Shown here one piece after another: positions 2,801 to 63,914 of a stretch of 64,000 bases of DNA (its first letter is position 1; every line of letters begins with the position of its first letter). A program made the translations under genes and the position numbers. A model generated the notes under the pieces. It had not been told where the DNA came from. It saw only the letters and a list, made by a program, of their open reading frames with translations, and did no database searches. This DNA is from Xiphias gladius (taxonomy: Eukaryota > Chordata > Actinopteri > Istiophoriformes > Xiphiidae), in the NCBI RefSeq assembly GCF_016859285.1, contig NC_053402.1:1813003-1877002 (forward strand), read 5' to 3'.

Positions 2801-3720
2801 TAACTGATTTTGTGATTGATAACTACAGCTAGAACATGACCAGAGCAGCGCTTAATGGCGCCAGAGAAACATAACCGTGATCACTTTTCTGTCCAACTCG
2901 TTACAGTTATGAACTGCAGTGGTGCATCACGTGCTACATGTGTTTGCTAGCTAGCCGACAGTACAACACACACAGCTAACACAGCTAGTTAAATGCTAAT
3001 AACTATTGAGGCAGACAGCAGAAAGTCAAACATTGAAACTTTAGAGACAAACAATAAAAATAAAAAAAATTGAACTGTCAACATCACTCTTAATGTTAGA
3101 AAGACATGTGAAAATTTGGCTAAGCTACAAAATTAAGTGTCATAAATAGTTAGTTACTTGTTAACGTCGTCAAATTGGTGGGTCTGTGCTTTAAGTAGTC
3201 GACGTCCATACGGTTCGTCTGTACACAACTGAAATTTGCTGAATTGAAAGTATTCCAATTGCTTCTGTATTAAACCGGCAGCCACTTGTCAGTAACTTTA
3301 GACACTTACAGATATTCACACAGTAGTGCTGGTTTGACGGTAACAAACTAACGTAAAGATCAAGAAATGCGATGTCATCGGTTTGTTTTATGTATGCTAA
3401 GTAAGCTACCCATGCCATCAAAATAAAGGAGCAATGGAGGAGCATTATTTTGTTGTTAGCTTCCCTGCAGCGCCAGGTTTCCTTTCAAGCCATGTCTTTT
3501 AAATTCAACATGGTTCACAGTTGCATTTTAAAACACTGACAACAAGGCAGGAGGAAACATGGGGATTTAAGGGAACTACTGGGAGCTACAACAAAAGCAA
3601 AACGTGTACACGTGTTCACACTGTATTCCATGGAGTACTTTTCCTCATTCTGTCCAGTGTTGTGTTGCCAAGAAGGAAACCACTTTTTGCGGGGTCTCTT
3701 GTGTCGTGAAGTCAACCGTG

Positions 3721-6700
3721 ATGGCCAAGCTCCAGGGCTTTGAGTTCTGGAATAAGACACTGAAAAAGGCACGCTTTGTGGTGGCACCCATGGTGGACCA
3801 GAGCGAGCTGGCCTGGCGCCTGCTGAGCCGCCGACATGGTGCTCAGCTCTGCTACACCCCCATGCTGCATGCTCAGGTATTTATCCGTGACGCCAACTAC
3901 AGGAGAGAGAACCTCTACAATGAGGTTTGTGCGGAGGACAGACCTCTCATCACACAGGTGAGGATCTACAAAGGCAAGGTCTACAGATTATTAATGATGG
4001 TAGATTGAAGTGCTGTTGGAAATCCCAGGGCATGGTTTTTCATTTTTGATAATCCCATGGAGTCACAGGCTTCTCACAAGGCATATTATGTGAACTTACA
4101 CACACTTACATTTGTATTGTTCCTTATGTAGTGTTAGATCTAAAACACAGTGTTCCATTTCCCTCGTGTCAGTTTTGTGCCAATGATCCAGAGGTGTTCC
4201 TTGAGGCGGCTCTGCTGGCCCAGGACTACTGCGACGCCATTGACCTCAACCTGGGCTGTCCGCAGATGATAGCTAAGAGAGGTAGGCACAGTTTCTACAG
4301 AAATTAACCCTCAAATTCTTACTATCACTAACCTCTTCTGATGCTTGTTTCTAAGGGCACTATGGAGTCTTCTTACAAGATGAATGGGAGCTGTTAGAGA
4401 GAATGAGTAAGTCTATCCATCTTAAGGTTCAGTTAAAACATCAGCAGAACAGAAATTTCAGTAGTTTACTCATCTGAAACCAGAAAATTCTGAAATATCA
4501 CACTTGGTCGGCGTAGTGCCACTTGAGCTTAGTTTTCTCTCAATTGATTTATAGTTTTTTTTGGTTGACAATCACCTCTGTCTTAATGTCTCAAACTAAA
4601 ATGCCACTCTTATTTTACAGTCAGGTTAGCCAATGAAAAGCTCTCGGTGCCCATCACATGTAAGATCCGTGTCTTCAAGGAGATTGAAAAGACGGTCTCC
4701 TATGCCCAGATGCTGGAGAAAGCTGGATGTCAGGTAAGATTATGGTGATGATTTGAATGAGTCCACTGCCTATCACCTCTAGTCAGTTCAGCTCATACAG
4801 TCACACTGCCCCCTCAACCCTGTTCTCTCTTAAGGCACCATCCCTCCTTAAGTTTTTTCCCTTATTTTCTATATTTTTTCCTTGTAGTGCTGTCTTTAGT
4901 TTATTTAGGACATCATTATCACTATTGCTACTATTATTACTGTTGTTGCTGTTACTGTTATCACTTATTTTCCACATTCTCTTTTTAAAAAATCCCTAAA
5001 AATCTCATTATTAAAACAGATTATGAATCAACTGCCTCTGTGGATCAGTGCTTTATGGTGTACAAATGTACAAATCAGATATTGCTTCACTTTCCCTCAG
5101 AATGAGAAATATTGGGCGTATTTTAAGTTCAAGCATGTTTATTTGTATATATCTTGTAAATTATCCAGAAATGCAGCTTCAGGAAGAATTAGAAAAGTCC
5201 TAAACTTGTCTTTTCGCCCCTGCATTTCTTTCCTAGCTGCTGACAGTGCATGGCAGAACCAAAGAGCAGAAAGGAGCCATGACAGGTATTGCTAGCTGGG
5301 AGCACATCAAAGCAGTACGGTGAGCTACCACCACTTTGTTTCAATCCTTAACTGTATTGAATTTAATCTGACCGATGGTCCCAGTTTAATATTTTAGTGC
5401 CTGGCTATCCAGTATTTTTGATATTAAAACAGAATCAAATGACATTGGCTGAAAATTTCCGTTATCCTGTAATGCATATAATTTTCATTAAATTGTTTGG
5501 TCTGCTTTTGCTACAGGAAAGCAGTTAATATTCCAGTGTTTGCTAATGGCAACATTCAACACCTGAGTGATGTGGAGCGCTGCATTCAGGAGACAGGGGT
5601 CCAGGGAGTTATGAGTGCAGGTTAGGGTTGCTTGTCTAGTTTTTGTTCATTACACACATTTTTTCCTAATTCATTGGTGTTAATAGATGATATACGCACG
5701 TTCCTGCAAGGGTTGTACATTGCTCTGAAAATACTTTGTGTTCTTTTTTGTATTATTTTTTTAGAGGGGAACCTCCATAACCCCGCACTATTTGAGGGCC
5801 TCAGCCCTCCAGTGTGGGAGATGGCTGAGGAGTATCTAGAGGTGGTGAAGCAGTATCCTCCCTGCACGCTGTCCTATGTGCGAGCCCACCTCTTCAAGCT
5901 CTGGCACCACACGTATGTCTGTCTGGTCTGCGTGTGTGTCTGTGTACATATGCATATACTTTATTGGGCTGAATATAGTACAACCCCCTACTTTACTGTC
6001 AGATGTTTTCGGGAGAAGACTTCTTGAAGATAAAGAACGCTTTATCAGACTGGGGCCCTGTTGGTGAGCGTTTCCAGAGGTGCAGTTAGTCTAGAGCTCG
6101 GCTAGTCCTCATCATATTGAATCCTCAAAACCTTTACTTGTGAAAAAGGGACACATGAAATTCTTCTATTTAAGTTATAAACCTTAAGATTTCAGTGCTG
6201 TTTGATGTGGTGACATCCACGGTTACCATGGTAACAGCAGTGTGGTTTAATACAACAGGTCCCAGAATTCAACAAACACTTTACTTGTGCTGTTTACTGT
6301 GCAACAAAACAAACCCATACTATTTATTTTTTTTAATAAAGAAGTCAATCAGTAACATTTGAAACTGATTCATGCTGCACACTGTGTGAGTAGTTTTCCA
6401 CTCAATCACAGGTCACAGTTAAAGGAGCCGGTTACCTGGCTGACACGTTGGAGGTGTGCAGCCTACGGCCTGCAGCTTTGCATCTAACAGCTGAGGCTGC
6501 TGCTTCTTTTTCCATTATTCCCTCCAATATTTCAAACTGATCCCTGTCCAAAAATGGATCAGACCAGATCTCATTTTGTGGATGCGTTTTTTAATGCGTT
6601 ATCCTCTGAGACAAATACATTGCATTTCCTATGACTACTTCATAATGTGGGCCAGTTTATGAACTAATTTGTAAAATGTGTCGTCCGACCACGTCAAAAA

Positions 6701-17897: not shown

Positions 17898-18723
17898 TTA
17901 CTCCTCCAAAAAAATGTATACTGGTTAGTGTTTTTATCTTACGCAGTAGCCCACAGGACCACGTGCCCAAGTATGTTACTTTGGCTACTGTTAACTAATA
18001 TAGTAAGCAATTTGAGAAAGCTGGAATCCGTACACTGTAAAAGATTTGTGTACTACCCCAACCCCCTACCATCCCGCAGGAGGTCCCAGAGCATCAGGAC
18101 TTCTTTTAACAGGCTCTGCAACAGCGTCTTCCTTTGAGCTGTGCGCATCCTCAACAGCTTTTACACCCTGGCCAGCACCCCCGTCCCCTCCCAATTGGTC
18201 CATGAGAAACAATATTTTGATTCTACGTACTGTATGTATGACCTTCATATGTCAAAATGAAAACAGAAAAGCTTGAATCTTGAAACCTAAACTGTTGTAC
18301 TGTAGCTGGTCAAGGTGGAGCTAGTTTATGCGCTGGAAAAGTTTGATAAAATTTAAAAAACTTAAATACTCAAGTAAAATACAAATGCCTAGAATGTGTA
18401 CTTAAGTAAATGTGTGTAGTTACCCGTCACAACTGGAGTAATTTGTTTTGGGAGTTGGGGTATACTCTGTGTTAGCCGTTGTAGATGTCTGTTTTTGTTG
18501 ACGTGTTTGAAGCATGCGAACAGAATTTCTCCAATACATATAGAGAGACTAAAATCAATGCTTTCAAACTTTAATGCAAAGGATTTAGTTGAACAAATCA
18601 GAGTACATGTCAATCAGCATAAAGAACTACATGGACTTGACAGTACAACACAGGGGAAAGGCTTTAAAGGGTAAGTTGGTTTGTCAGGTGAGTAGACATG
18701 GACCGCTTCAGCTTCTCAGAAAT
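17898..18723. other. Intergenic DNA and probable 3' UTR of the - strand protease homologue
   Basis: 18300-18420 contains a short copy of the 'ggtggagctagttt...aagtaaaa' repeat also seen at 19065-19345. The first possible polyadenylation hexamer for the - strand gene is ATTAAA (complement of 18570-18575), about 150 nt past its stop. No gene is recognised. Confidence 0.4.
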
Positions 18724-21700
18724 TTAGACCTCAGCTGAGGCTTCCTCTCGTTGGTGGATGTGATCGTTGATGAAGCGCAGATGCTTGGACACCTGCGTGT
18801 AGATTCCAGGGCGGCCTGGGAGACCACAACCATCAGGATTCCCATTACTCATGATGCCAGCCTGGATGAAGCCACCGGCTGTACGACACACCAGGGGGCC
18901 ACCATAATCTCCCTGTGGAGCACAAAAAACACACACACACACACACACTCATTGTGGTAGTCTTTACACTTTGCATCGATCCTTCTGTATTTTCACTTGT
19001 GGAGTTGATACACAACCATAAAACCGATAAATATGGTAGTGTTGGGGGAATAGGTCAATAGCTCGGTCATTATCAGTGGTGGAAGACACTCCTTAATTAA
19101 AAGTACCAATACAACAATATAAAAATACTCAATTAGATGTAAAATTCCTGCATTCAAAATCCTACTTCAGTAAAAGTACTATGAAGTACAGTATTATAAA
19201 CAAAATGCATTGAAAGTATCACTAGTGAAAGTACTCATTTTGCAGCAAAATGTCTGCAGTAACTAATATACATGACATTTTTAATTATGATGCATCAGTA
19301 CTATTTTACTGTTGTAGCTGCTTGGGGTGGAGCTAGTTTTATGCATTTAGGAAGCAGGGGGTCGGCCCCCTTCAAAGGGTCACATGATAAAGCTAAGGGG
19401 TCGTGAGATGATGACTGGCGTTGGAAAGAAGAAAAAACAAAGTTCTGATACACAAATTTGTTTTCATTGTTTGGATTTTCGAGTGAATCTTTACCTTTTT
19501 GTGAAATATTGGATCCATTTACCTCTATGTACTTTAAACAGTTATAGAAATCAAACATGAGAAGTTTAAGAGGCTCTTTGGTGGAACTGCTAACAACTCC
19601 AGGTCTCATACGAAGTTTTTAGAAGTTGTTTAAAGCTTAACCAAAACTCTGTTTAATCAACTAAGGCACAATATTATTCTGAACTGAATAATAAAAATAC
19701 CCACAAACTTAGAATATTGTCATGAACAATCAACTCTACCATAAATCCTGCTGCTGCCACCGCATTGGTTTCAACCAGTGTAGCCTGTGAGAATTTTCTT
19801 ATATTTTTCAGCCATAAAACGCACAACATAAGATCTTATATCCCACCCTCAGATTCTGATTCCTCTAAAACACCATCCAGTCAGTCGCCTCCAGCTGTTT
19901 AAACCTGTGTCATCCTCCCAGCTGTCTGAGGTGGTCTCACACATGAATTCCGTCTATTGTCCCTCAGATATTATACTGTCACGCCTCTTTAAGAATTTTT
20001 TTTGTTGTTGTTTTTTTATCACAATTTTGTCCCATTATTTTGGCCATAATTAATAGCTGCTTAACAGGTTGAGTTGTCCCTTCCAGTTTTAAACATGCAA
20101 TTTTGTAACCTAGCCTTACCCCAGTGACCAAAGTACCTACAGGCCCATTTCCAAGCTACCATTTATTTCCAAGGTTTTAGATAAAGTTGTGTTCTCTCAG
20201 GTCTCTTCCTACTTAAACACTTCCAGTATCTATGATGAAGGACACGTCTGGTTTTAGAGCTCTGCACAGTACAGAATCCACCCTATTGAAGGTACACAAT
20301 GACATCCTTCTCTCTATCAGTTCTGGTTCTCGTGCCATTTTAGGTCTGCTTGATCTCAGCTCAACATTTGGCACAGTCAACCATGACATTCTTCTAAAAT
20401 ACCTGGAGGGCGAAGTTGGCCCCAGTTAGGCATGGTTTCGTCTCTTATCTAAGAGGGAGAACCTTTTCAGATAGAATAGGGAACTGTCATCCCCTGCTCC
20501 CATTTAATAGGGCATCCATCAAGGTTCAATTTTAGGGCCTCTTTTATTTTCACTTTACATGCTTCCTCATGCATCTATCTTTCAAATTTACAATATTCGG
20601 TATCACTGTTGCGCCGATGACACACAGTTTTACCTGCCAGTTACACCTGACAGCCCTTGCTCACTGAAAAATCTTTTTAACTGTCTAGATGACATTGGAT
20701 GGGGAAGAACTTTTTAAAAGTAAATGAAAACAAAACTGAAGTAATTATATTTGGCCCTCCAAACTAGCCTGAGCGATGTGCTTAGCCCCCTGTCTACAAA
20801 TTCGCACAAAGTGGTTAATAAACTTGGTGTCTTCTTACACACCTCTCTTAATTTTAATAAACAAATTAGTAGTGTTGTGAAAGGCAGCTTTTATCAGTTC
20901 AGAACTACAGCCAAATTAATGCTGTTTTTATCTCAGAAGGACCTGGAAACAGTCATCCATGTTTTTATCACCTCTCCGCTGGATTACTGTAACTCCCTGT
21001 ATATGGGATGGACCCATTCCACCCTTTCTCGAATATAAATGGTTCAAAATGCAGCTGCCAGACTTTTAACTGGTACAAAAAAAAAAATAATATAACACAT
21101 CAATCTTGTTCTGGCACACTTGCATTGGTTACCAGTGAAATACAGAATTGATTTTATAATCTTAATCTCTTAATTTATTTATAAAGCCCTCAATGGTTTA
21201 GCTCTGCAAAACATTACTGTATTTTCGATTGATTGATTTCTGCCCTAAGGTCACGTAGGTCATCTGCACAACAACACCTTTCAGTCCTCCACTCATGCCT
21301 TAACACCAAAGGTGACCCGGCTTTTTCTGTTGCTGCTCTGGAATAGTCTCCTGCCCCACATGTATCATAATTTGTAGTTGGTTTTATTCAGTTTCTCTTA
21401 AATCTCTAATTTCTCTTGCATTGATTTGGATTTTATCCTCTTGCTACCTATTCATTTATTTATATATACTTGCATTGCTAATCCATCTGCCGCAATTTTA
21501 AAGCACTTTGGGTCAACTTCTGTTGTTTTTAAATGTGCTATATGAATAAAAGTGACTTGACTTGACTAACTCACAAACAACAGTGACAAGGTGTCCCAAC
21601 TAGACAGTGCTTTTAATTGGCCCTAACCCAAAAAGCTTGGAGGCCCATGTTTTTTTCAAAAAATATTAAACTGTAAAATAACAAATAAAAACAGCTGTCC

Positions 21701-24700
21701 GATAAATGTAGCAGAGTAAAAACTATTATGTTTGCCTCTGAAATACTTTACCTCTGAAAACCTATACTTTAAGATACACCCCCTGATTTATTGAATACAA
21801 TTGATTCATTCTGCTATGAAAGAATACTGAACTTATATTTCAGCCGACTTAAATAGCAAAACTCACGTCGCAGGCATCCTTCCCTCCATTAATGTACCCT
21901 GCACACATCATGTCCGGGGTGATCTCAGAATACCATCTCTTACAGTCTTTCTCACTCAAGATGGGAATCTTCAGCTCCTGAAGGGTTTCTGGATCCTGCA
22001 GTGGAACTGCATAGACACACACAAGTGGAGAGGATGAAGTGATATTTTCTTGACATCTTCCTCTTATAGGTAGGCTTTGAATTTGAAAAACATTATAAAG
22101 TGTTAAGTGTTGTTGACAGTCGAGTAACATTAAGGAACTAGAATTACAGTGGCTTCAGGAAGTATTCAGAGACCTTCACATTCTGCACTCTTTATTTTGT
22201 TGTAGATTTATTTTAAATGGATAAAACTGCCATATTTTCTCATCAGTCTACATTCGATGTAACCTGTAATTACAAAGTGAGAAAATGTTTTTAGAATTTT
22301 TTGCAAATTTATGAAAAATCGAAAGCTTAAACCTCTCATTTACAAACATGTCCAGACCCTTATTTCAGTTCTTTGTAGAAGCCCCTTTGGCAGCAATTGC
22401 AGATTTAAGTCTTCTTCTGCAAGTCCCCATAAGCTGTGCGCACCCGGATTTGGGCAGTTTATCCCATTCTTCCAGCCAGATCCTCTCAAGTTCTGTCAGA
22501 TTGGTTGGGAAGTGTCATGGCTGTATGCTTCAGGTCATTGTTATACTGAAAGGTGAACTGTCGCCCCAGTCTCAGTTTACATGCACGTTTTTCTTCAAGG
22601 ACCTCTCTGTATTTGCTGCATTCATCCTTCCCTCAATTCTGCCCAGTCTCTGCTGCTGAGAAGCACCCCCATAACATGATGCTGCCACCACCAGGCTTCA
22701 ATGAAGGGATGGTATTAGCCAGGCGATGAGCAGTGCCTGGTGTTCAACAGTTGTGCAAAAAAGGTTCAGTGTTATGTCTCATCAGACCATAGAATATTTT
22801 TCCTTGTGTTATCAGTGTCCTTAAAAGCCAAGCACTCCAAGCAGGCTGTCATATGCCCTATATCAAGTGGCTTATGTTTAACCGCTCTACCGTAAAGGCC
22901 TGATTGATGGAGTGCTGCTGAGATGGTCGTCCTTCTGGCAGGTTCTCCCATCTCTGCAGAGGACTTCTAAAGGTCTGATGACTGCTGGGTTCTTTGTCAC
23001 CTCCCTGACCAAGGCCCCTCATGCCCAGTTATTCAGTTTGGCTGGACAGCCAACTCTAGGAAGAGTCCTGGTAGTTACAGACTTCTTCCATTTCACAATC
23101 ATTAAGGCCACTGTGCTCCTGGGAAAATTCAGAGCTTTAGAAATGGTTTTATACCCTTGTCCTGATCTACGCTTCGCCTCAATTTTGGATTTCCTTGGAT
23201 TTCATGGCTTGGTTTCTGTCCTGACATGCAATGTAAAATATGGGGCCTTACATACACAGGTACGTGTAATCCAATCAGTTGCCGCAGGTGGACTCCAATT
23301 AAGTTGTAGGTGCATTTCAAGGAAAATGAAAGCAAACAGGATGCACATGAACAGAATTTGGAGCGCCACAGCAAAGGGTCTGAATACATTTGTAAATAAG
23401 AGATGTTAGTTTTTGGTTTTTAATTCATTTGCAAACATTTTTAAAAACATGTTTTAACTTTGTCATTATGGGTTGTTGAGAGGAGATTGATGGGCAATTA
23501 TTTTTTGTTTTCATTTGTCCTTATACAGTATCTTATAGGCTACTTTATGTGTCCTTACTACCCTTTCCAAGGTTTCCCCAGCCAGTGATCCAACACTCAG
23601 ATGATGGGCCAAAGTTGTTGTTGACACTGGGTAGACTCACTGGTTGGACTTCATCTGAGAATATCAGCTTCTTCTTCAGGTGGATCAGGGCAATGTCATT
23701 GATAAAGCCACTGCTCACAGCTTGGAACCTTGAGTGTGTGATCACATTTTTTATACCCATGTAGCGGACAGCCCCCTTTCTCAGTTGGTATGCACCGACC
23801 CAAACCATTGATCGTCTATAATCAGGATTCCTCCGTCTGTCAACACAAACACATGTATTAGTTTTTCTGCATTTATGGATGACGCTCCATTAACTGTAAA
23901 ACCCAACAAACATTCACTACACAGTAGTATTCAAACATGAATGAAGCTTCAGCAGATGGGGGACATCAGTTAAAATGCGACATGTAAGCATTTCCTTGTT
24001 TTGCCATTTGATTGATAGAACCAATAAAGATTTTATAATCTTGGCAAATCTACCTGTTATTGACCAGTCACTTTTGTCTGTGTGACATCTTGACTGTGGT
24101 TTAAATTTCAACTTAAAAACATAAGGGCTTTAATGGGGTTATCATTATTTTTTTCAATAGTAATAGCTCAAATGACCACTTGCTTCAATATAGTTAATAT
24201 CGGTGTCATCCAGCATTGTGTATGTTTAAAGCTGCAAAAATTAGTATTTTTTTATTAACTATGGCTAAAATGACAATGTGTAATGTGAAGGAGATCACTC
24301 GTAGTGATGAGCCCACAGAGAATTATCACCAACTCTGTAGTTCGCTCAGCTCGATGGACCTTTATGGCGTCTTTAAGCTGATTGTTTGGAAATTCCAGCA
24401 AAAAAACAAAAAAAGAAACAAAAAAAACCCCCCTGCAAATTACTTGCTCAACACGAAAAAGCAGACAAAGCAGATAAAGAACAGCTAAAGAGCTAGATAC
24501 TTCCCTCAGGAGTTGGGGGAAACACAACACAGAACTAAAAGAAGTGTAAATTTTGCACTTGCATTTTTCATCATCATCAGACTCCAAACAAATGCTAATG
24601 CTACTCTGTGTTTGGATCTCTGGATGTCTGTATCTCTCCAGTGTATCAACTCAAAAGGTGACAATATATCAAAGTTGTTCTCATAGCTTGTTTCTGCTGC

Positions 24701-26834
24701 CCCAAAGTGGCCAAAAATCTTTTACTGCAAGTTTGAATAAATACAAAATGGCCAGCTATAGCAATGTGTCTCAATTTGAAGCATGTTTGCTTAAGGTGCT
24801 TTATCTAAACATGTTTTATACAGTGTTACTTCAGTATTATAACAGACTACAATGATGAGGTGTATCAAGATGTTTAAGCTGCCATGTTGTAATCTAGAGG
24901 TTGTTAGTTAATGTCAGATCAAGGATGTCCAATTTTGAAATTATAATTTATTTTCAGAATTTCTGTCTTTAACGACACTATCTATATATTAATTACAACA
25001 TACTGCAACATGGTGTTTCAGACCTCTACATCCGTATTAGGCTATTAACCATTGCATTTTTTAATATATAACACATAGTATTTTAATGTTCAAAGATTTA
25101 TTTAACAATTAGCTAGTTTACATAATCTAATGTAATAGCACAGTTGTACTTTTAATGACTTTTGTTGTTATATGAACTGCAGTAAAATTTTCAAAGGTAT
25201 ATTGACAATTTCAGTATCATTTATTGAAATGTTTCATAAAGAACACGGTTTTACTCTTAAATGAATTCTGCAGGTACAGTAAACATGTTGAAATGTGTAA
25301 AAGAGTTATTATACATTATATAAAATAAACAAAAGCATTGTAGATTTGTGTCCCACTTTAACAGACCAGCTGTCCAACTAAAACCGTAGAACATGAAGGA
25401 GGGAAAAGGGGAACTTTATGGGTTTTATATGATTATAATGTTTACACAATAATCAATTCCCTTCAACGCTTTACATGAGTAAATTAACAAGAATTGTACC
25501 ATTTCACAACGCCATTGGTTGACAATATTTTTTTCAAGCATATGACCCCAGGGTGGCTCCATGAAAGGCAGTATAGCAGCCTTGATACACCTAAATGCTT
25601 TTAGTAATGAGGGGTTTCATTACTATGGAAGATGATGAGGGTCATGTGAAAAAAAGAAGACATTAGAATTCAGAAACCACAAAAAAAACACAAACTTACG
25701 AATCCCAGCAACGTGCAGCGGTCAGCACCCAATATTCGTTGAGGATGGTGCCGCCGCAGCGCCACTTGATCTTGCTGTCAGATGTTATGTTTAGGTGGAC
25801 CATCCAAGGCCATCTGCCCTTTGCTGCATTGTTACCCCCAACGATGGAGCTCCTCATCTCAGCTCCATGCAAACCTAAAAGAGCAATGAGGAATCTTTAT
25901 AAAGGCTATGTTAAGGTTGAAAAAAAAAATAATTACACCTTTTTTTTCCCAACAAAATGTTGGAAATTGTCTTAAATATTTGACATGTTCAAATATTGTC
26001 CTGGGTTAAAGGAGTAGTTTGACATTTTGGGAAAAACTCTTATTTGCTCTCTTGTCGAGAGTTTGAGAGGAAGATTGATGCCACTCTAATGTCTGTATGT
26101 TAAATATAAGTCTACAGCTAACTGCCATTTATCTTAGTTTAGCATAAAGACTGGAAACAGGGGGAAACAGTTAGCTTGGCTCTGTTCAAAAGTAATAATA
26201 TCCGCCTACCAAAAAAATTGTACAGATTACACAAATGAGATATGATGTGTTAAGTATTGAGCTTTAAGGATGCTGTTTGGTGTATTTTGTTACCTGTGGA
26301 CGGAGCCGGGCAAGCTGTTTCCCCCTGTTTCCAGTCTTTACGCTAAGTTAGGCTAACAGGCTGTTTGCTGTGGCCTCATATTTACCAGGCAGATATAAGA
26401 GTGGTATCGATCTTCTCATCTAACTCTTGGCAAAAAAAGCAAACCAGCGTATTTCCCAAAATGTCTGTTACTTTAAATCTACAACATGTTACAGGCAGTC
26501 ATAGGTTTGTAAATACATAGATCAGACTAAGATGCCCAGTCATCACCATTAGTCGAACAACTACCAATATCATCAGAATGATTTATAATAACAGAGCAAT
26601 TTCACTGGTTTTATAAGTAGTTTATAACAATCTCTCAAGGTAAATAATTAGATTCTATTAGTATGAGTTTAAACAGGTAGAAGAGTCATTTAAACAAAGA
26701 TGAACCTCCACAAACTGAATACAGATGAGTCAACACAGAATAATGTTCTCATAATGCCAAGGATTGTACTTGCCCTTCTCACCTCCAGTGTTGTGGATCA
26801 GTACCAGCACAGTGAGTAGTTTGCAGAAAGCCAT
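18724..26834 (-). CDS. Tryptase/prostasin-like serine protease homologue with two catalytic residues replaced (putative pseudoprotease), 5 exons, 276 aa
   Basis: Exons, gene order: 26834-26783, 25874-25700, 23836-23562, 22006-21867, 18912-18724; all introns GT-AG, frame 831 nt. Residues 1-17 form a hydrophobic signal peptide, so the product is probably secreted. The S1 (chymotrypsin) fold is clear: IVGG at 28-31, TAARC at 69-73, NDIAL at 122-126, WITGWGN, DMMCAG, GDYGGPL at 215-221, and a C-terminal RPGIYTQVS. In active enzymes TAAHC carries the catalytic His and GDSGGP the catalytic Ser. Here they are Arg72 (CGT) and Tyr217 (TAT), each one base from the ancestral codon; the catalytic Asp123 is kept. 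The trypsin-type S1-pocket Asp is retained (KDACDGDYGG), and SWG is SNG. The activation site reads R-S-S-IVGG instead of R-IVGG. No stop or frameshift is present. The nearest family by wording of the motifs is tryptase/PRSS27/prostasin. It lies between dus1l and cln3 on the opposite strand; introns are filled with repeats. Confidence 0.93.
19065..19345. repeat. Teleost interspersed repeat (aagtaaaagtac type) in protease intron 4
   Basis: Contains 'cagtggtggaagacactcc', 'aaaagtaccaatacaac', 'cctgcattcaaaatcctact' and 'aaagtatcactagtgaaag', a recognisable abundant fish repeat. It ends with 'ggggtggagctagtttt'. A second short piece lies at about 18300-18420. No coding capacity. Confidence 0.65.
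19740..21570 (+). mobile_element. 5'-truncated L2-type non-LTR retrotransposon, decayed
   Basis: The + strand translates in broken frames as a LINE reverse transcriptase. A stretch [10 protein letters not shown]...[17 protein letters not shown] lies at 20250-20400, then a [13 protein letters not shown] motif near 20508-20550, the catalytic-type ADDTQFY at 20613-20633 and a C-terminal part [12 protein letters not shown] (about 20960-21005). The 3' end near 21535-21568 finishes with 'tgaataaaagtgacttgact', a typical L2-like tail. Several stops and frameshifts separate these blocks, so it is inactive. It lies inside protease intron 4, in the sense opposite to the gene. Confidence 0.85.
21849..21866 (-). 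other. Splice donor of protease exon 4 (GTGAGT)
   Basis: GAC|GTGAGT at the complement of 21867/21866 ends the exon just before the GDYGGP exon. It is phase 0, so Tyr217 is not a product of a mis-set junction: the codon lies six bases inside exon 5. Confidence 0.85.
22147..23530 (-). mobile_element. Tc1-like transposon, decayed, in protease intron 3
   Basis: The left end cagtggcttcaggaagtatt follows a TA at 22145-22146. The - strand encodes a degraded Tc1 transposase. ILWSDET, the start of the catalytic domain, reads from the complement of about 22775-22797, and the helix-turn-helix region lies towards 23000-23150. The related fragments at 55886-56535 share 'ggccactgtgctc' and 'ctctaggaagagtcctgg'. 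The right terminal repeat is not recognisable, so the end near 23530 is approximate. Confidence 0.75.
24225..24740. repeat. Interspersed repeat with 'taaagctgcaaaaattagta' start
   Basis: Begins 'tttaaagctgcaaaaatta' and ends 'ctgctgccccaaagtggcca' then 'actgcaagtttgaat'. This resembles a widespread teleost repeat of about 500 bp that starts and ends near 'aaagctgca/tgcagcttt'. Frames open in it on both strands are repeat-derived. Confidence 0.5.
24740..25699. other. Protease intron 2, unrecognised AT-rich DNA
   Basis: No conserved frame, named repeat or RNA gene is visible between the repeat ending near 24740 and exon 2 at 25700. Confidence 0.4.
26006..26476. repeat. Foldback / MITE-like element in protease intron 1
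   Basis: The ends are inverted: ttaaaggagtagtttgacat on the left and atttcccaaaatgtctgtt then actttaa on the right. Internally 'cataaagactggaaacaggg' is mirrored by 'ccctgtttccagtctttacg'. Same family as 13338-13691 and the partial copy near 37005-37510. No coding capacity. Confidence 0.85.
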
Positions 26835-26886: not shown

Positions 26887-26892
26887 TTTATA
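26887..26892 (-). promoter_or_regulatory. TATA box of the protease homologue gene
   Basis: The complement reads TATAAA, 53 nt upstream of the start codon (26834-26832). Initiation about 25-30 nt downstream would give a 5' UTR of about 25-30 nt, a compact layout usual for tissue-specific secreted proteases. An intact core promoter argues against a dead gene. The initiation site itself is inference. Confidence 0.7.
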
Positions 26893-46897: not shown

Positions 46898-49800
46898 ATG
46901 GGGGACATCAGTGACCTGGACCGACAGATAGAGCAGCTCAGACGCTGTGAGCTCATTAAGGAAAATGAAGTCAAAGCACTGTGTGCCAAAGCCAGGTAAT
47001 GGTTCATAATACAGACACACAAAAAAACGTTGTTTGCGATGCTAAATATATACAGCAGTTTCATCAGACCATTTGAGTCCTGCTAGATACATCCATTCAT
47101 GTAGGTAGCAAAACACACACACTAATCTTAATAGTGTGCTGTTATTGAGATTAGTACAATACGATCAACATGCTTCAATAAAAATTTTGGGACCACATTT
47201 TGCATTTATTACATAGCTGACAGTGGATAGATGACAGGAGATGAAGGGACATGTACACATAAACACACTGACAGGCATCAGTCATACTGCACTGAAATGG
47301 AAGAGACAGACCAGAAATTAAACAAAACTAGGTTAAAAAAAAAAGCATATGACTGGTGTGCGTATATTCAATGTAAAAATTGAGGGCATAGTTGAAAACC
47401 ATTGTGTAACCGCTGTAAACAACTACTTTCAATGGAAAGTTCCTAAAGCCTTCTTGAGAAGTAACTAAATGTTGCCTGATAACTAATCAGTATATTTTTA
47501 ATATCATCATGTTGTATTTGCATTCCCCTAAGTGTCAGCCGTTTTCAGCCTTTTTTCTGTTTGCTTCTCTCCTTCTCTCTGTGCTCACATATGCAGTTAC
47601 TTAATACAGCAGAGTTCACATAAAGCTGTCCTCATTTACTTGCTTTTCTGTTTCTGCTGTCAGACAACGGAACAAGCATGAAAGAGTGACTGAAACGTGG
47701 CCCATTAAGACGACATGTTAACCAGCAGTCACTTCCACGCCATTTCAAAGCTGCTGCTCTAGTACTAAAATCCTGATTTTATAACCACGATGTCGACAAA
47801 ATCTGACAAAATCCCCATACATATAAGTTGAGAACAACAACTGTGCTGTGATTTCGGCTATATTTACTTGCAAAATGATCCCTCAGAAAGAAAGTTAGAA
47901 GCTCATTCATATGTGTGTCAGCTGCCATGGGGTCAGTTGAATGAGATGCTCATAGAGGTGTGTCTGTGGCGTGGGGCAATACTGGCAACTCTCTTTTACA
48001 GAAAGTAGCTAAGGTCACCAGAACGTCCACAAATTACTCTATAACTGAAAGTAATTACCAGCTACACTTACTTCATATGCAGCTTGCCAGTCCTAACCTT
48101 CAAAACTTTAGTAGAACTAAATAAAAACTCAGGAAATCATATTTTATTATGTATGTGTATGTATTTTCAGAGAGATTCTGGTTGAAGAAAGCAATGTCCA
48201 GAGAGTAGACTCTCCTGTCACAGTAAGTAACATTTTTTGACAAATTCTTTGCTCAGAATTTAAATAAAGTTAAATAAGTGTGTTAAATTTGTTTCTCCTA
48301 ATTTTCCTCATAGGTGTGTGGGGATATACATGGTCAGTTCTATGACTTGAAAGAGCTATTTAGAGTAAGTATCTATCTGCTGTTACACACTGCTCAATAC
48401 AGACTAAAGTTTGTTGGTCATGCTGGATGCCTAACGGATAAATCTGGTATTTAGTCTAGCCCCTGTTCTCCTAGTATGATAATGGTGTGTGGAATATTTT
48501 CCCTTACTTCACTGCAGCTGTCAGCACTACCCTAAAAGACACCCATACAGGTCCAAAAAGAGTTTAAAACACAATTTTAATGCAGACACACTAACTGCAG
48601 TTGGACTTGTCTTTGATAGCTGCATCTAATTTTAATAGCCTATTTGATGTAGCATTGTTCACCCTGTGTGCTGGATGCTAGATTTCTACAGTGTTCAAAT
48701 TATAATGAACAAAAAGGAAAGGAGGGTCATTTTTGTTTGGGTTTTTTTTTTTTCCAGTTTGGAAGGTTTTCTAATGAGTTTAGTTAGTAGAGTGCCAACA
48801 TGTAACTTGACTATTTGAAATAAGGTATAGACCGATCTCATTGCATTGTGGGGATTTGTAGGGACATGCAGTGGTTGTCCGATAGACTCTGTTGTAAGGC
48901 AGAACTCCTTACAAACTGTTGCTTGGTCAAGTTTGATACAAGTTGAATCCCACTGAGAATGGTGGTGAGGTTATTCATTACATTGATGTGTTTTTTACGT
49001 AAATTCTATATTATCGGATGGTTAAACTGCTTGTTAATAATCTTTCCACCTTGCAGGTTGGCGGAGATGTCCCAGAGACAAATTATCTCTTCATGGGCGA
49101 CTTTGTGGACAGAGGATTCTACAGTGTGGAGACTTTCCTTCTTTTGCTAGCTCTGAAGGTACACGAGAATTTTAGTCCATGTCCACTGCTGATCTGCACC
49201 AACCACCTCTGGGTTGGCATACGTGGAACAAGTGTGCATTTAGTAAACAGATCAGAAGAGAGCAATGAATATCTGAATTAAATTCTATTAACGTTGGTCT
49301 GGATAGAGCTCCACGAATAGGATTTGTCCCACTTGTTTTTTGCCACTTAACAGGAGCCCCGTGTGTTACCTGCAAATGCAGATTTCATTCATCTTTTCGG
49401 GGTTGTCATGGAATTTAATTTCTGCACATGCATTTAAGGAAATGCACGAGGCATCCTCACATTTTTGCCTCTGCTGTGCTCCTAAGGTGCGTTATCCAGA
49501 CAGGATAACCTTGATCCGAGGAAACCACGAGTCCCGGCAAATCACCCAGGTCTACGGCTTCTACGACGAGTGCCTCCGCAAGTACGGCTCAGTCACTGTC
49601 TGGAGATACTGCACCGAGATCTTTGACTACCTGTCCCTGTCTGCTATCATTGATGGCAAGGTGAGATGCATTGTCCAGTACTCTTTGTGACTTTGATGAA
49701 AATGGAAATTAATGCACCAAATTCAATGACATGCAAATTTTTTTCTTAGAGGTGTCGCTGCTCTAATATCTGGTTGAGTAACTTGACAGTCACTGATGTA

Positions 49801-60700: not shown

Positions 60701-62014
60701 CAAGACCAAAATGTCAGGAATTTTTCTTGGACAAGAACACAACGAATAAATGGTAAGATCCAAAGCCTTACTCTGTTTTCAACAGATTTAAGGGTTGATA
60801 AAGAATAGTAGTTTATAGAATGATGTATGGTTTGTCCTTGCCACTGTATATGAAATCTAATTGAAAAGTGACAGTGATACACCTGCCTCCTACAGAGTGC
60901 TCTTGACCTGACTAGATGTTGTGAGGGGTTTTTCAGCACCAAGGGAAGAATTCTGTGATCATCCACTTTAGTTGTGTTCTGTGATCTTCCAGGCATTTTG
61001 GTGTTGCTGAGCTCACCAGTGCGTTTCTTCTGTTTAAGAATGAACCAAAGTTTTTGCCATCTGTCTGAAAGGCTTGTTTTTTTGAATTTTATGCAAATTC
61101 AACACTCGGAATCAGCTCCAGACCTTTTTATCTGCTTAATTTTTCACGAAATAACGAGGGAACAGGCCACAGCTGGCCGTGAAACTGATCAGTTGTCAAC
61201 TGTCCAATTAGTTTTGAGCCTCTGAAAATGAGGGACTATGTATAAAAATGGCTTTAATTCCTAAACAGTTGATGCAATATTTTTGTTAAACCCCTTGAAT
61301 TAGAGCTGAAAGTCAACACTTCAATCACATTTTGATGGCTTTGTTTCAAATCCATTGTGGTGGTGTAGAGAGGAAAAATCAAGAAAATTGTGTCGCTGTC
61401 CAAATGCTTATGTAACTAAATAATAAGGGGTATTTTTAAACCCAGACCAGTAGCGGAACTTAAGGATGCTGATGTTTGTTTGCCAATCATCTGTCCTACA
61501 CTTTGGTCCATAGAAAGATTGAATACTAGTAGCCAGATAGTCATGGAATGTAGAAATGTAGTTCATGCTCAGCAGAAGATTCCTGTCCACTTTGGACATT
61601 GACTTTTAAGCTCTCTTTTAGGTTCTCAGACTGTGGCTCGCAGCATCCTGCAGGCAGCTTCAGTCCACTTGACCCCAGTGACCTTGGAGCTGGGCGGCAA
61701 GTGTCCGTGCTTCATATACGGACGGGTGAATATTGCAGCTGCTGCTCGCCGCTTGGTGTGGGCTAAGTTTTTCAACTCTGGCCAGAGTTGCGTGGCTCCG
61801 GACTATGTGCTTTGCTCACAGGCCACACAGGATGCCCTGCTGCCTGCGCTGCGTGAAGCCCTGGAGGATTTCTACGGCAAGGAGCCTCAAACCTCTCCTG
61901 ACCTGTCCCGCATTGTTTCACCCCGACACTGGACGCGTTTGATGGAACTGCTCAAGAGGTCCAGCGGAAAAGTTGTTCTGGGAGGAGAGAGTGACCAGGA
62001 GGACAAGTACATAG
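57756..62014 (+). CDS. Aldehyde dehydrogenase, family 3 (ALDH3A/B-like), first six coding exons; continues past the window edge
   Basis: Exons: 57756-57917, 58291-58401, 59398-59518, 59939-60024, 60524-60605, 61622-62014, encoding the first 318 residues of a protein usually 450-490 aa. The family oxidises medium/long-chain and aromatic aldehydes with NAD(P)+. Motifs: WNYP with Asn115, KPSE near 140, [16 protein letters not shown] with Glu210 (general base), and GQSCVAPDY with the catalytic Cys244, at the same numbers as in human ALDH3A1. The stretch after TGS reads QTVARS where most ALDH3 members have a VGK motif, so the Gly-Lys pair is replaced. The start at 57756 is followed by the family-typical [12 protein letters not shown]. 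The remaining exons (EEIFGP region and C-terminus) must lie beyond 64000, since 62015-64000 is intron with a Tc1 element. The member (3B1-like or the fish 3D1 type) cannot be settled, hence no symbol. Confidence 0.93.
60900..61425 (-). mobile_element. Tc1-like element fragment in ALDH3 intron 5
   Basis: 'ccaggcattttggtgttgct' followed by 'gagctcaccagtgcgtttct', and then 'caatcacattttgatggctt' and 'cttatgtaactaa', match the internal part and right end of the element at 31149-31890. The left terminal repeat is missing. Non-functional. Confidence 0.7.
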
Positions 62015-62081
62015 GTAAATTAAGAAGTAGCAATGGGCAGTATAATGACTGACCTTTGTGATACTGAGAGAACAGCTACTT

Positions 62082-62334: not shown

Positions 62335-63914
62335 CAGTCCTGGTTGAAATTATTGGCTCCCCTGAATTTTAAGTACAGAATTTAGAATATCTTCAGACAT
62401 AACTGCAAATTAACCAGTTTTGTATAATCAGAATATTTAATAAAATGCCCCAAATTACTGAACAACAACAACACAATTGCTTTCATGTTGAGAAATAAAA
62501 AATACAGACATAAAATGTACGCTTGACATAATTAATGGCACCCTTTGGATGAATTGAAATTAGTTCCTCAAACAAAATAAAAAACGAATGAGACTCACAT
62601 GCTGAATTTTCAGTGTTCACATGACCTGAATTAACCAATGAATGATGGTTTTACTTCATAAAGGGGCTGATTTATTCCAGTTTTTTTTCACAATGATGAA
62701 GACAATAGAGCTTACTGAGAGCATCAGAAATGCTATTATCAAAAAACAGAACGATTCCAAAGGCTGCAAGGAAATCACCAAAGATCCAGAAATCCCTGTT
62801 TCAAGAGTTTGTAATGTTATCAAAAAGTTTCACAGTCATAAAACTGTTAAGACACTTCCAGGACCTGGTGCTAAGAAGAAACTCATTGAGACAAGTCTGC
62901 AAACGTTGATTGTGTTTTGTGGTTAAAACACCTCCCAAGACATCTAAAGAGCTTCAGGCTGACCTGGATCAATCTGGAGTGGTGGTTTCAGCCTGTACCA
63001 TACACTGCACACTAAACCAAGTAGGGCTCCATGGTCGAAGGCCAAGGAGGACACCACTATTAAAAAAGGCACAAAAAGGCAAGACTTTTGTTTGCCTAAA
63101 CTTTCATATTTAGTCCCAGTCTTTCTGGGATAAAGTTCAATGGACAGATGAAACCAAAGTAGAGCTCTTTGGGAATGCAGTGCTTCAGTTTGTTTATAGG
63201 TGATGAAATGAAGCCCAGAAGGAAAAGAACAAACTAGCTACAGTAAAACATGGTGGAGGTTCTATCGTGTTGTGGGTCTGCTTTGCTGCCTCTGTTACTG
63301 GAGCCACTGAATGTATCAAAAGGAACGATGAAATCAGAAGATTACTGAGGCATTTTAGAGCCAAATGTGTTACCCAGTGTCAGAAAACTAGGTTTGAGGT
63401 GAAGGTCTTGGGTCTTTTAGCAGGACAGTGACCCAAAGCAAACAACCACCAGCATAAAAGACTGGTTGAAGAGGAAAAGATGGACGGTTTTAAACTGGCC
63501 AGCAATGAGTCCTGACCTAGATCCCATGAAAACCTTTGGTGAGAGCTGAAATCTTCCATTGCAAAAAGGAGTCCAGCAAACTTAAAAGAGCTTGAACCCA
63601 TAGCAATGGAAGAGTGGCAGAAACTACCAGCAGACAGGTGAAAGAAGCTTCTAGATAGCTACAAGACACGTTTAGAGGCTGTCACTGTTAACAAAGGTTA
63701 TTAGCGAAGGGTTCCAGTAATTGTCTGCTGTGTTTGTGTCATTTTGTGTTTTGTATTATTTCACTATTATACAAGTTTTTTAAATTTTTATTTTGTTCAG
63801 TAACCTTGGTCATTTTATTTAAATATTTTGATTAGACAAAATCCTTTAATTTACATTTATTTCGGAAGAACTGTACTTAAAATTCAGGGGTGCCAATAAT
63901 TTCAACCAGAACTG
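62335..63914 (+). mobile_element. Near full-length but broken Tc1-like transposon (about 1.58 kb)
   Basis: It begins cagtcctggttgaaattatt after a TA (62333-62334) and ends aataatttcaaccagaactg, inverted copies of each other; the right-hand TA is lost. The + strand holds the transposase in pieces: an N-terminal helix-turn-helix (RNAIIKKQNDSKGCKEI and VKTLPGPGAKKKL, 62700-62890), a second DNA-binding part (KTSKELQADL, then GRRPRRTPLL, 62930-63080) and the C-terminal catalytic stretch (WLKRKRW-type motif near 63465). Stops at 62924-62926 and 63111-63113, and further frame breaks, make it inactive. The 15991-16971 element is an internally deleted relative. Confidence 0.9.

What the first reader, a model, noticed from the sequence alone, without database searches (positions are those of the whole stretch)
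18724..26834. Intact secreted S1 protease homologue with catalytic His and Ser both substituted
Seen: all five exons join in frame with GT-AG introns, a signal peptide and a TATA box, yet TAAHC reads TAARC (Arg72, codon CGT) and GDSGGP reads GDYGGP (Tyr217, codon TAT). Each change is one base away from the usual codon. Known: S1 enzymes need His57, Asp102 and Ser195; losing two of three abolishes proteolysis, and inactive S1 homologues (azurocidin, haptoglobin, masquerade-type proteins) have become ligands or regulators. Inference: an actively kept pseudoprotease, perhaps a teleost-specific lineage with a binding or decoy role. A decaying gene would be expected to show stops or broken splice sites over this length.
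Basis: partly seen in the sequence, partly recalled or inferred. Interest (0 to 1): 0.82.

Follow-up and report, generated by a model that had tools for sequence, protein, structure and literature searches.

The report
Fish trypsin-like protein without catalysis
This fish gene encodes a complete, probably secreted protein shaped like a digestive-type protease but lacking residues needed to cut other proteins, so it may work by binding rather than cutting; such inactive relatives are a known kind, and this looks like a further member.

Summary
On the minus strand, 26834-18724, five GT-AG exons (phases 1,2,1,0) encode an intact 276-aa S1 (trypsin-fold) protein. His57 is Arg (CGT), Ser195 is Tyr (TAT), Asp102 is kept. 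Two further lesions were missed. The activation-site P1 residue is Ser27, where 25 of 25 readable rows (of 37) from the same genome have Arg or Lys. Position 215 is Asn, where 31 of 31 readable rows have Trp, Phe or Tyr. Yet 39 of 43 paralogue-conserved columns are kept, and eight cysteines sit where four canonical disulphides need them. No close paralogue was found in the genome. A rough bound puts both triad hits plus an open frame under neutral decay at about 9e-4 or less. Best reading: a maintained secreted S1 pseudoprotease acting by binding, like HGF or haptoglobin. Not shown: expression, orthologues, dN/dS, partner. No other fish genome could be searched, so 'teleost-specific lineage' is untested; a recently inactivated gene is the main rival. 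S1 pseudoproteases are a known kind, and this genome holds others. Moderate interest.

The parts
26887..26892 (-). TATA-like box, starting 58 nt upstream of the ATG
   Evidence: sequence
26783..26834 (-). exon 1: start codon and hydrophobic signal peptide ([18 protein letters not shown]), phase 1 donor
   Evidence: signal peptide judged by eye
25700..25874 (-). exon 2: propeptide, IVGG N-terminus and the His57 region (VLTAARC)
25846..25848 (-). codon of Ser27, activation-site P1 (Arg or Lys in 25 of 25 readable rows of 37)
   Evidence: codon place worked out by hand from the exon coordinates
25711..25713 (-). codon CGT = Arg72 at position 57
23562..23836 (-). exon 3: Asp102 region (NDIAL) and GWG
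23695..23697 (-). codon of Asp123 = Asp102, kept
   Evidence: codon place worked out by hand from the exon coordinates
21867..22006 (-). exon 4: ends KDACD, including Asp189 (kept)
18724..18912 (-). exon 5: GDYGGP, S1 pocket, C-terminal region and stop
18904..18906 (-). codon TAT = Tyr217 at position 195
18844..18846 (-). codon AAT = Asn237 at position 215 (Trp 23, Phe 7, Tyr 1 in 31 readable rows of 37)
18570..18575 (-). ATTAAA polyadenylation-like signal about 150 nt after the stop

Best explanation
A maintained, secreted, single-domain S1A pseudoprotease. The signal peptide sends it out of the cell (inferred). It folds as a trypsin-like double barrel with the four canonical disulphides (inferred from the retained framework). 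It cannot cut: the general base is Arg and the nucleophile Tyr (shown by sequence). Nor can a trypsin-like activator cleave at the normal R/K-IVGG junction, because P1 is Ser (sequence shown; consequence inferred), so it most likely stays single-chain and zymogen-like. It therefore acts by binding another protein through the former active-site face or surface loops, as the S1-like domain of HGF does with Met or haptoglobin with haemoglobin. The partner is unknown.
For: Intact five-exon frame with GT-AG splice sites. 39 of 43 columns that are at least 90% conserved in paralogue rows are kept, and 2 of the 4 lost ones are triad residues (hypergeometric p = 0.019). D189, G193, D194, G216 and G226 are kept, as are eight framework cysteines. 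P1 and Trp215 are lost as well. GC3 is 0.57 against 0.37 GC in introns; at fourfold sites the excess over introns is z = 2.9. The neutral-decay bound is 9e-4 at most without indels and 1.4e-4 with 0.1 indel per substitution. Tyr at 195 is what HGF has in solved structures. Discussion passages of a 2026 paper list HGF, MSP, protein Z and haptoglobin as S1 pseudoproteases acting as ligands, cofactors or scaffolds (PMC13194640, passages only).
Against: No expression, orthologue, dN/dS or binding data. The erosion is light: 4 of 43 columns against 13 of 43 in the haptoglobin-like gene and 9 of 43 in the factor VII-like gene of the same genome, which is also what a recently inactivated gene would show. 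The protein's terminal branch (1.04) equals its tree sister's (1.015) but is the fourth longest of 27, about twice the prostasin- and trypsin-like ones, so relaxed or faster evolution is not excluded. The pairing has 0.88 support and may be long-branch attraction. The triad enrichment is modest, was noticed after the fact, and its reference rows were partly chosen for an intact triad. In the 37 rows, triad-defective S1 domains keep a basic P1 wherever it is readable, so loss of P1 is not a usual part of pseudoprotease evolution in this genome.
Confidence: 0.56

Rival explanations
1. A recently inactivated protease gene under relaxed constraint: functional loss within the last few percent of neutral divergence, frame still open by chance, no function today.
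For: Light erosion elsewhere (4 of 43 columns), S1 pocket residues still intact, fourth-longest branch of 27, no close paralogue found.
Against: Four independent lesions at function-specific sites (P1, 57, 195, 215) are many for an otherwise undamaged frame. The joint probability of two triad hits and no stop or splice loss peaks at about 9e-4, at 3.6% divergence, in a rough model. GC3 remains gene-like.
Confidence: 0.27
2. A maintained inhibitor-binding or substrate-binding decoy that uses the retained Asp189 S1 pocket to occupy inhibitors or substrates of real trypsin-like proteases.
For: D189, G216 and G226 are kept, the set for binding Arg or Lys.
Against: P1 Ser27 probably prevents Ile16 insertion and pocket maturation; Tyr195 and Asn215 alter the cleft (inferred). 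Covalent serpin trapping needs Ser195 (recalled).
Confidence: 0.1
3. Sequencing or assembly error, or a null allele in the sequenced individual, at codons 72 and 217.
For: Each triad change is one base from a usual codon (codons).
Against: Two further lesions at P1 and 215 need extra independent errors, while the rest of the frame is clean. No second copy that could be collapsed was found.
Confidence: 0.04
4. An active protease with a non-classical mechanism.
For: The fold and S1 pocket residues are kept.
Against: Neither nucleophile nor general base is present. In one search exons 2-5 each matched once at this locus and no alternative exon with His57 or Ser195 appeared.
Confidence: 0.02

Closest known systems
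Hepatocyte growth factor (HGF) S1-like beta chain
   Same: S1 fold without catalysis, Ser195 replaced by Tyr in the same GDYGGP motif, and position 215 no longer Trp; Asp102 kept (recalled).
   Different: HGF has an N domain and kringles and a cleavable activation site (recalled). The window protein has no extra domain in Pfam, a Ser at P1, and Arg rather than Gln (recalled) at 57. HGF is not among the 60 PDB hits shown of 556, so Tyr195 looks convergent.
Haptoglobin
   Same: Secreted S1 pseudoprotease. The haptoglobin-like gene of the same genome also has Arg at 57, with Ala at 195.
   Different: That gene has lost 13 of 43 framework columns, D189, G216 and G226 among them; the window protein keeps these. 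Haptoglobin carries CCP domains (recalled).
Prostasin, tryptase, factor XI and plasma kallikrein S1 domains
   Same: Best PDB sequence matches (E 4e-48 to about 2e-41).
   Different: Those are active enzymes. The prostasin-like gene (name recalled) at C9:12.857 Mb has a further intron between the IVGG and His57 segments, absent here.
Azurocidin
   Same: Secreted single-domain S1 homologue lacking both His57 and Ser195 (recalled); called catalytically inactive in PMC4646688 (passage).
   Different: Met-ase locus protein (same passages); no locus or sequence kinship was tested here.

Membership tests
S1A (chymotrypsin) fold family | Full-length trypsin-domain match with IVGG, GWG and GDxGGP framework and canonical cysteines | tested here: met
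   PF00089 1-220 of 220, E = 6e-58; 39 of 43 conserved columns kept; cysteines listed, pairing recalled
Active S1 peptidase | His57-Asp102-Ser195 triad | tested here: not met
   Arg, Asp, Tyr
Active S1 peptidase | Basic P1 residue before IVGG for zymogen activation | tested here: not met
   Ser27; Arg 18 and Lys 7 in 25 readable rows of 37
S1 pseudoprotease (non-peptidase homologue) | Intact secreted S1 fold with triad loss | tested here: met
   secretion and fold inferred from sequence
S1 pseudoprotease (non-peptidase homologue) | Expressed and conserved, with a non-proteolytic role | not testable with these tools
   no transcripts and no other fish genome held
HGF/MSP | Kringle-bearing alpha chain | tested here: not met
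   Pfam finds only Trypsin and DUF1986 in the 276-aa product
HGF/MSP | Tyr at 195 | tested here: met
   GDYGGP here and in HGF PDB chains; MSP recalled, its alignment was not shown
Haptoglobin | Closest sequence match to haptoglobin | tested here: not met
   haptoglobin is absent from the 60 PDB hits shown of 556; the genome's haptoglobin-like gene is on C1
Prostasin/tryptase | Exon structure with a separate intron after the IVGG segment | tested here: not met
   one exon here, two in the one prostasin-like gene examined; that this defines the family is recalled

The most novel reading that the evidence does not exclude
A fish-specific secreted ligand: a single-domain, uncleavable S1 fold that independently took on the HGF-type Tyr195 and lost its activation site, so that it signals or regulates constitutively in the zymogen-like form without needing an activating protease.
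Probability: 0.14. Interest if true: 0.68.

Novelty: new member of a known kind. Interest (0 to 1): 0.36.

Why it matters
If kept in many fishes, it would be another S1 lineage with HGF-like Tyr195, and one whose activation site is also gone. It would be a small, simple system for asking how a protease fold becomes a binding protein without kringles or a two-chain switch. The other triad-defective S1 genes seen in the same genome (haptoglobin-like, factor I-like, factor VII-like, polyserase-like second domains) would make one fish genome a useful catalogue of stages of such loss.

Tried and rejected
Orthologues: no relative was confirmed in IMG/VR viral contigs (1 stretch matched a pattern, 0 confirmed) or in GTDB genomes (8 stretches, 0 confirmed). 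Literature: none of the papers listed in searches (11 of 11; 1 of 1; 1 of 1; 7 of 7; 20 of 226; 3 of 3; 8 of 39; 2 of 2; 8 of 363) is about such a fish protein, judged by title and start of abstract; passages were read in four papers, no whole text. In one search none of the 20 listed papers holds GDYGGP. One search was spoiled because a term was matched as 'factor VIII'. None of this shows absence from print.

A hidden alternative exon with His57 or Ser195 was rejected: exons 2-5 each matched once at this locus (exons 4 and 5 again). A genome-wide pattern for Arg or Ser at position 57 gave 70 hits (control 7); of the 20 fetched, only this gene lies in an S1 exon, and the other 50 were not examined. 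Patterns for GDYGGP gave one hit that reads collagen-like by eye and, with AG before it, only this gene; other splice phases were not covered. An early conservation test was wrong because exon-junction residues were misread and masked (p 0.17-0.23); it was redone (p 0.035, 0.019 and 0.017 at the 80, 90 and 95% cut-offs). Structure prediction was not attempted, because a spliced product is not read letter for letter from the DNA as the tool requires.

Rows dropped before the count: 12 of 37. Three had non-canonical triads (C1, C8, C13:329344); one had Asp195 (C12); two were degenerate second domains (C9, C3); two had the Ser195 junction unread (C18, C24); four were near-duplicates or close tandem copies. 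H57 20/20 and S195 23/23 conservation is therefore partly by construction. Rows are fragments, and one gene (C17:24.12 Mb) appears as two. The 37 rows come from 31 merged stretches around the best matches, not from every S1 gene of the genome, and only the best candidates were scored (150 of 353, 140 of 212). An earlier count gave a wrong place for the C9 second domain; the place in this report is corrected.

Full report
What is there. The window is G000:C3:1813003-1877002 of a 690.8-Mb genome with 1298 contigs; that it is a fish is inferred from the size and gene content. Dihydrouridine synthase (3571-4008), calcineurin-like phosphoesterase (49307-49690; PPP4C recalled from the motif) and aldehyde dehydrogenase (61603-62052) segments flank the finding. 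On the minus strand five exons join in frame with GT-AG introns into 276 aa. TATA-like and ATTAAA signals frame the gene. The Trypsin profile is covered end to end. The best PDB matches are factor XI, prostasin, plasma kallikrein and tryptase (60 shown of 556).

In a query-anchored alignment of S1 rows from the same genome (25 of 37 rows; drops listed under Tried and rejected), 43 columns are at least 90% conserved. The window protein keeps 39 and loses H57 (Arg), S195 (Tyr), a Tyr at 113 (Phe) and a Trp at 261 (Phe). Two of three triad positions among four losses gives a hypergeometric p of 0.019. This test was made after the fact and its reference rows were partly chosen for an intact triad. 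Two class-conserved positions are also lost. The activation P1 residue is Ser27; it is Arg or Lys in 16 of 16 readable rows of the 25 and in 25 of 25 readable rows of all 37. Position 215 is Asn; it is Trp in 18 and Phe in 5 of 23 readable rows, and Trp 23, Phe 7, Tyr 1 of 31 readable rows in all 37. Kept are the IVGG N-terminus, Asp189, Gly193, Asp194, Ser214, Gly216 and Gly226 and eight cysteines at the places of four canonical disulphides (pairing recalled). So activation, base, nucleophile and part of the substrate cleft are lost, while the fold is kept.

Kinship. No close paralogue was found: matches elsewhere in the genome are 27-57% identical and 33-56%, with only the best candidates scored (140 of 212, 118 of 118). 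In a tree of 27 sequences (of 37 rows then assembled, window included) it groups with a neurotrypsin-like domain on C11 (support 0.88; name recalled) beside prostasin-like genes (name recalled). Its branch, 1.04, equals that sister's (1.015) but is the fourth longest of the 27, so faster evolution is not excluded and the pairing is weak. The prostasin-like gene at C9:12.857 Mb splits the IVGG and His57 segments into two exons, unlike this gene.

Kept or decaying? A rough neutral model (stop fraction 0.045 assumed, 0.042 measured on this CDS; splice sites included) gives the joint probability of two specified codons being hit while the frame stays open. It is at most 8.9e-4 without indels and 1.4e-4 with 0.1 indel per substitution. 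GC3 is 0.57 against intron GC 0.37; for fourfold sites z = 2.9. In the introns transposon-like sequence is present: a Sleeping Beauty-type HTH at 23022-23201 (E = 1.9e-13) in the same intron as a match to a Tc3-type HTH below its cut-off, and reverse-transcriptase matches below the cut-off in intron 4. Frame and composition favour maintenance but do not replace orthologues. Against this, erosion outside the active site is light (4 of 43) compared with the haptoglobin-like (13 of 43) and factor VII-like (9 of 43) genes of the same genome. Loss of catalysis may therefore be fairly recent.

How it probably works. A protein with these changes cannot perform acyl-enzyme catalysis (established S1 chemistry). 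With Ser at P1 it should not be activated by a trypsin-like convertase and probably remains single-chain (inferred). HGF carries Tyr at the same place in solved structures. Passages of PMC13194640 describe HGF and MSP as S1-fold receptor ligands with the pseudo-active site as recognition interface, protein Z as a cofactor, and haptoglobin as a scaffold. I commit to a binding role of that general type, at 0.56 for the whole statement. I rank recent inactivation second (0.27) and an S1-pocket decoy third (0.10).

Position among known things. It meets the sequence definition of an S1 non-peptidase homologue and fails that of an S1 peptidase. It is not an HGF/MSP member (no kringle found) and not the genome's haptoglobin-like gene. 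S1 pseudoproteases are well known, and other triad-defective S1 genes occur in this genome, so the surprise is moderate. The combination of Arg57, Tyr195, Asn215 and Ser at P1 was not seen in the papers listed by my searches, which is weak evidence.

Limits. No orthologue, transcript or structure could be obtained. Chymotrypsin numbering, disulphide pairing and several gene names rest on recall. Viral and prokaryote collections gave nothing.

Noticed in passing
G000:C1:22280846-22281346 (L007/L042): Haptoglobin-like S1 gene (best PDB haptoglobin, 1e-32) with Arg at 57 (TAGRN) and Ala at 195: Arg57 occurs in two S1 genes of this genome.
   Followed up: partly
G000:C12:18684557-18684730 (L048): Complement factor I-like S1 domain (best PDB factor I, 5e-32) reading GDDGGP (Asp at 195), with a similar copy reading GDSGGP about 14 kb away (L085).
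   Followed up: partly
G000:C13:330844-331398 (L006/L045): Factor VII-like S1 domain (best PDB factor VII, 4e-58) reading GDDGSP, His57 and Asp102 kept, 9 of 43 conserved columns lost; may be the fish factor VII inhibitor-type paralogue (recalled).
   Followed up: partly
L082:4244-5252 (G000:C3:24.418 Mb) and about G000:C9:12.836-12.837 Mb (L018): Degenerate further S1 domains behind intact ones (His57 to Asn or Gln, Asp102 to Asn), resembling polyserase-type tandem domains (type recalled).
   Followed up: partly
window 22152-23520 (intron 3): Tc1/Sleeping Beauty-type transposon remnant: HTH_SB 1.9e-13 at 23022-23201 minus, Tc3-type HTH below its cut-off at 22775-22966; outer bounds judged by eye.
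   Followed up: partly
window 20217-20714 (intron 4): Reverse-transcriptase matches below the cut-off (RVT_1, E 0.0017 and 0.006) in two frames: probably a broken LINE-like remnant.
   Followed up: partly
window 62642-62926: Another Sleeping Beauty-type HTH remnant (E 3.8e-8, below the cut-off) near the aldehyde dehydrogenase segment.
   Followed up: no
window 26052-26433 (intron 1): A 160-nt inverted repeat, 76% complementary with 62 nt between the arms, perhaps a small foldback transposon.
   Followed up: no
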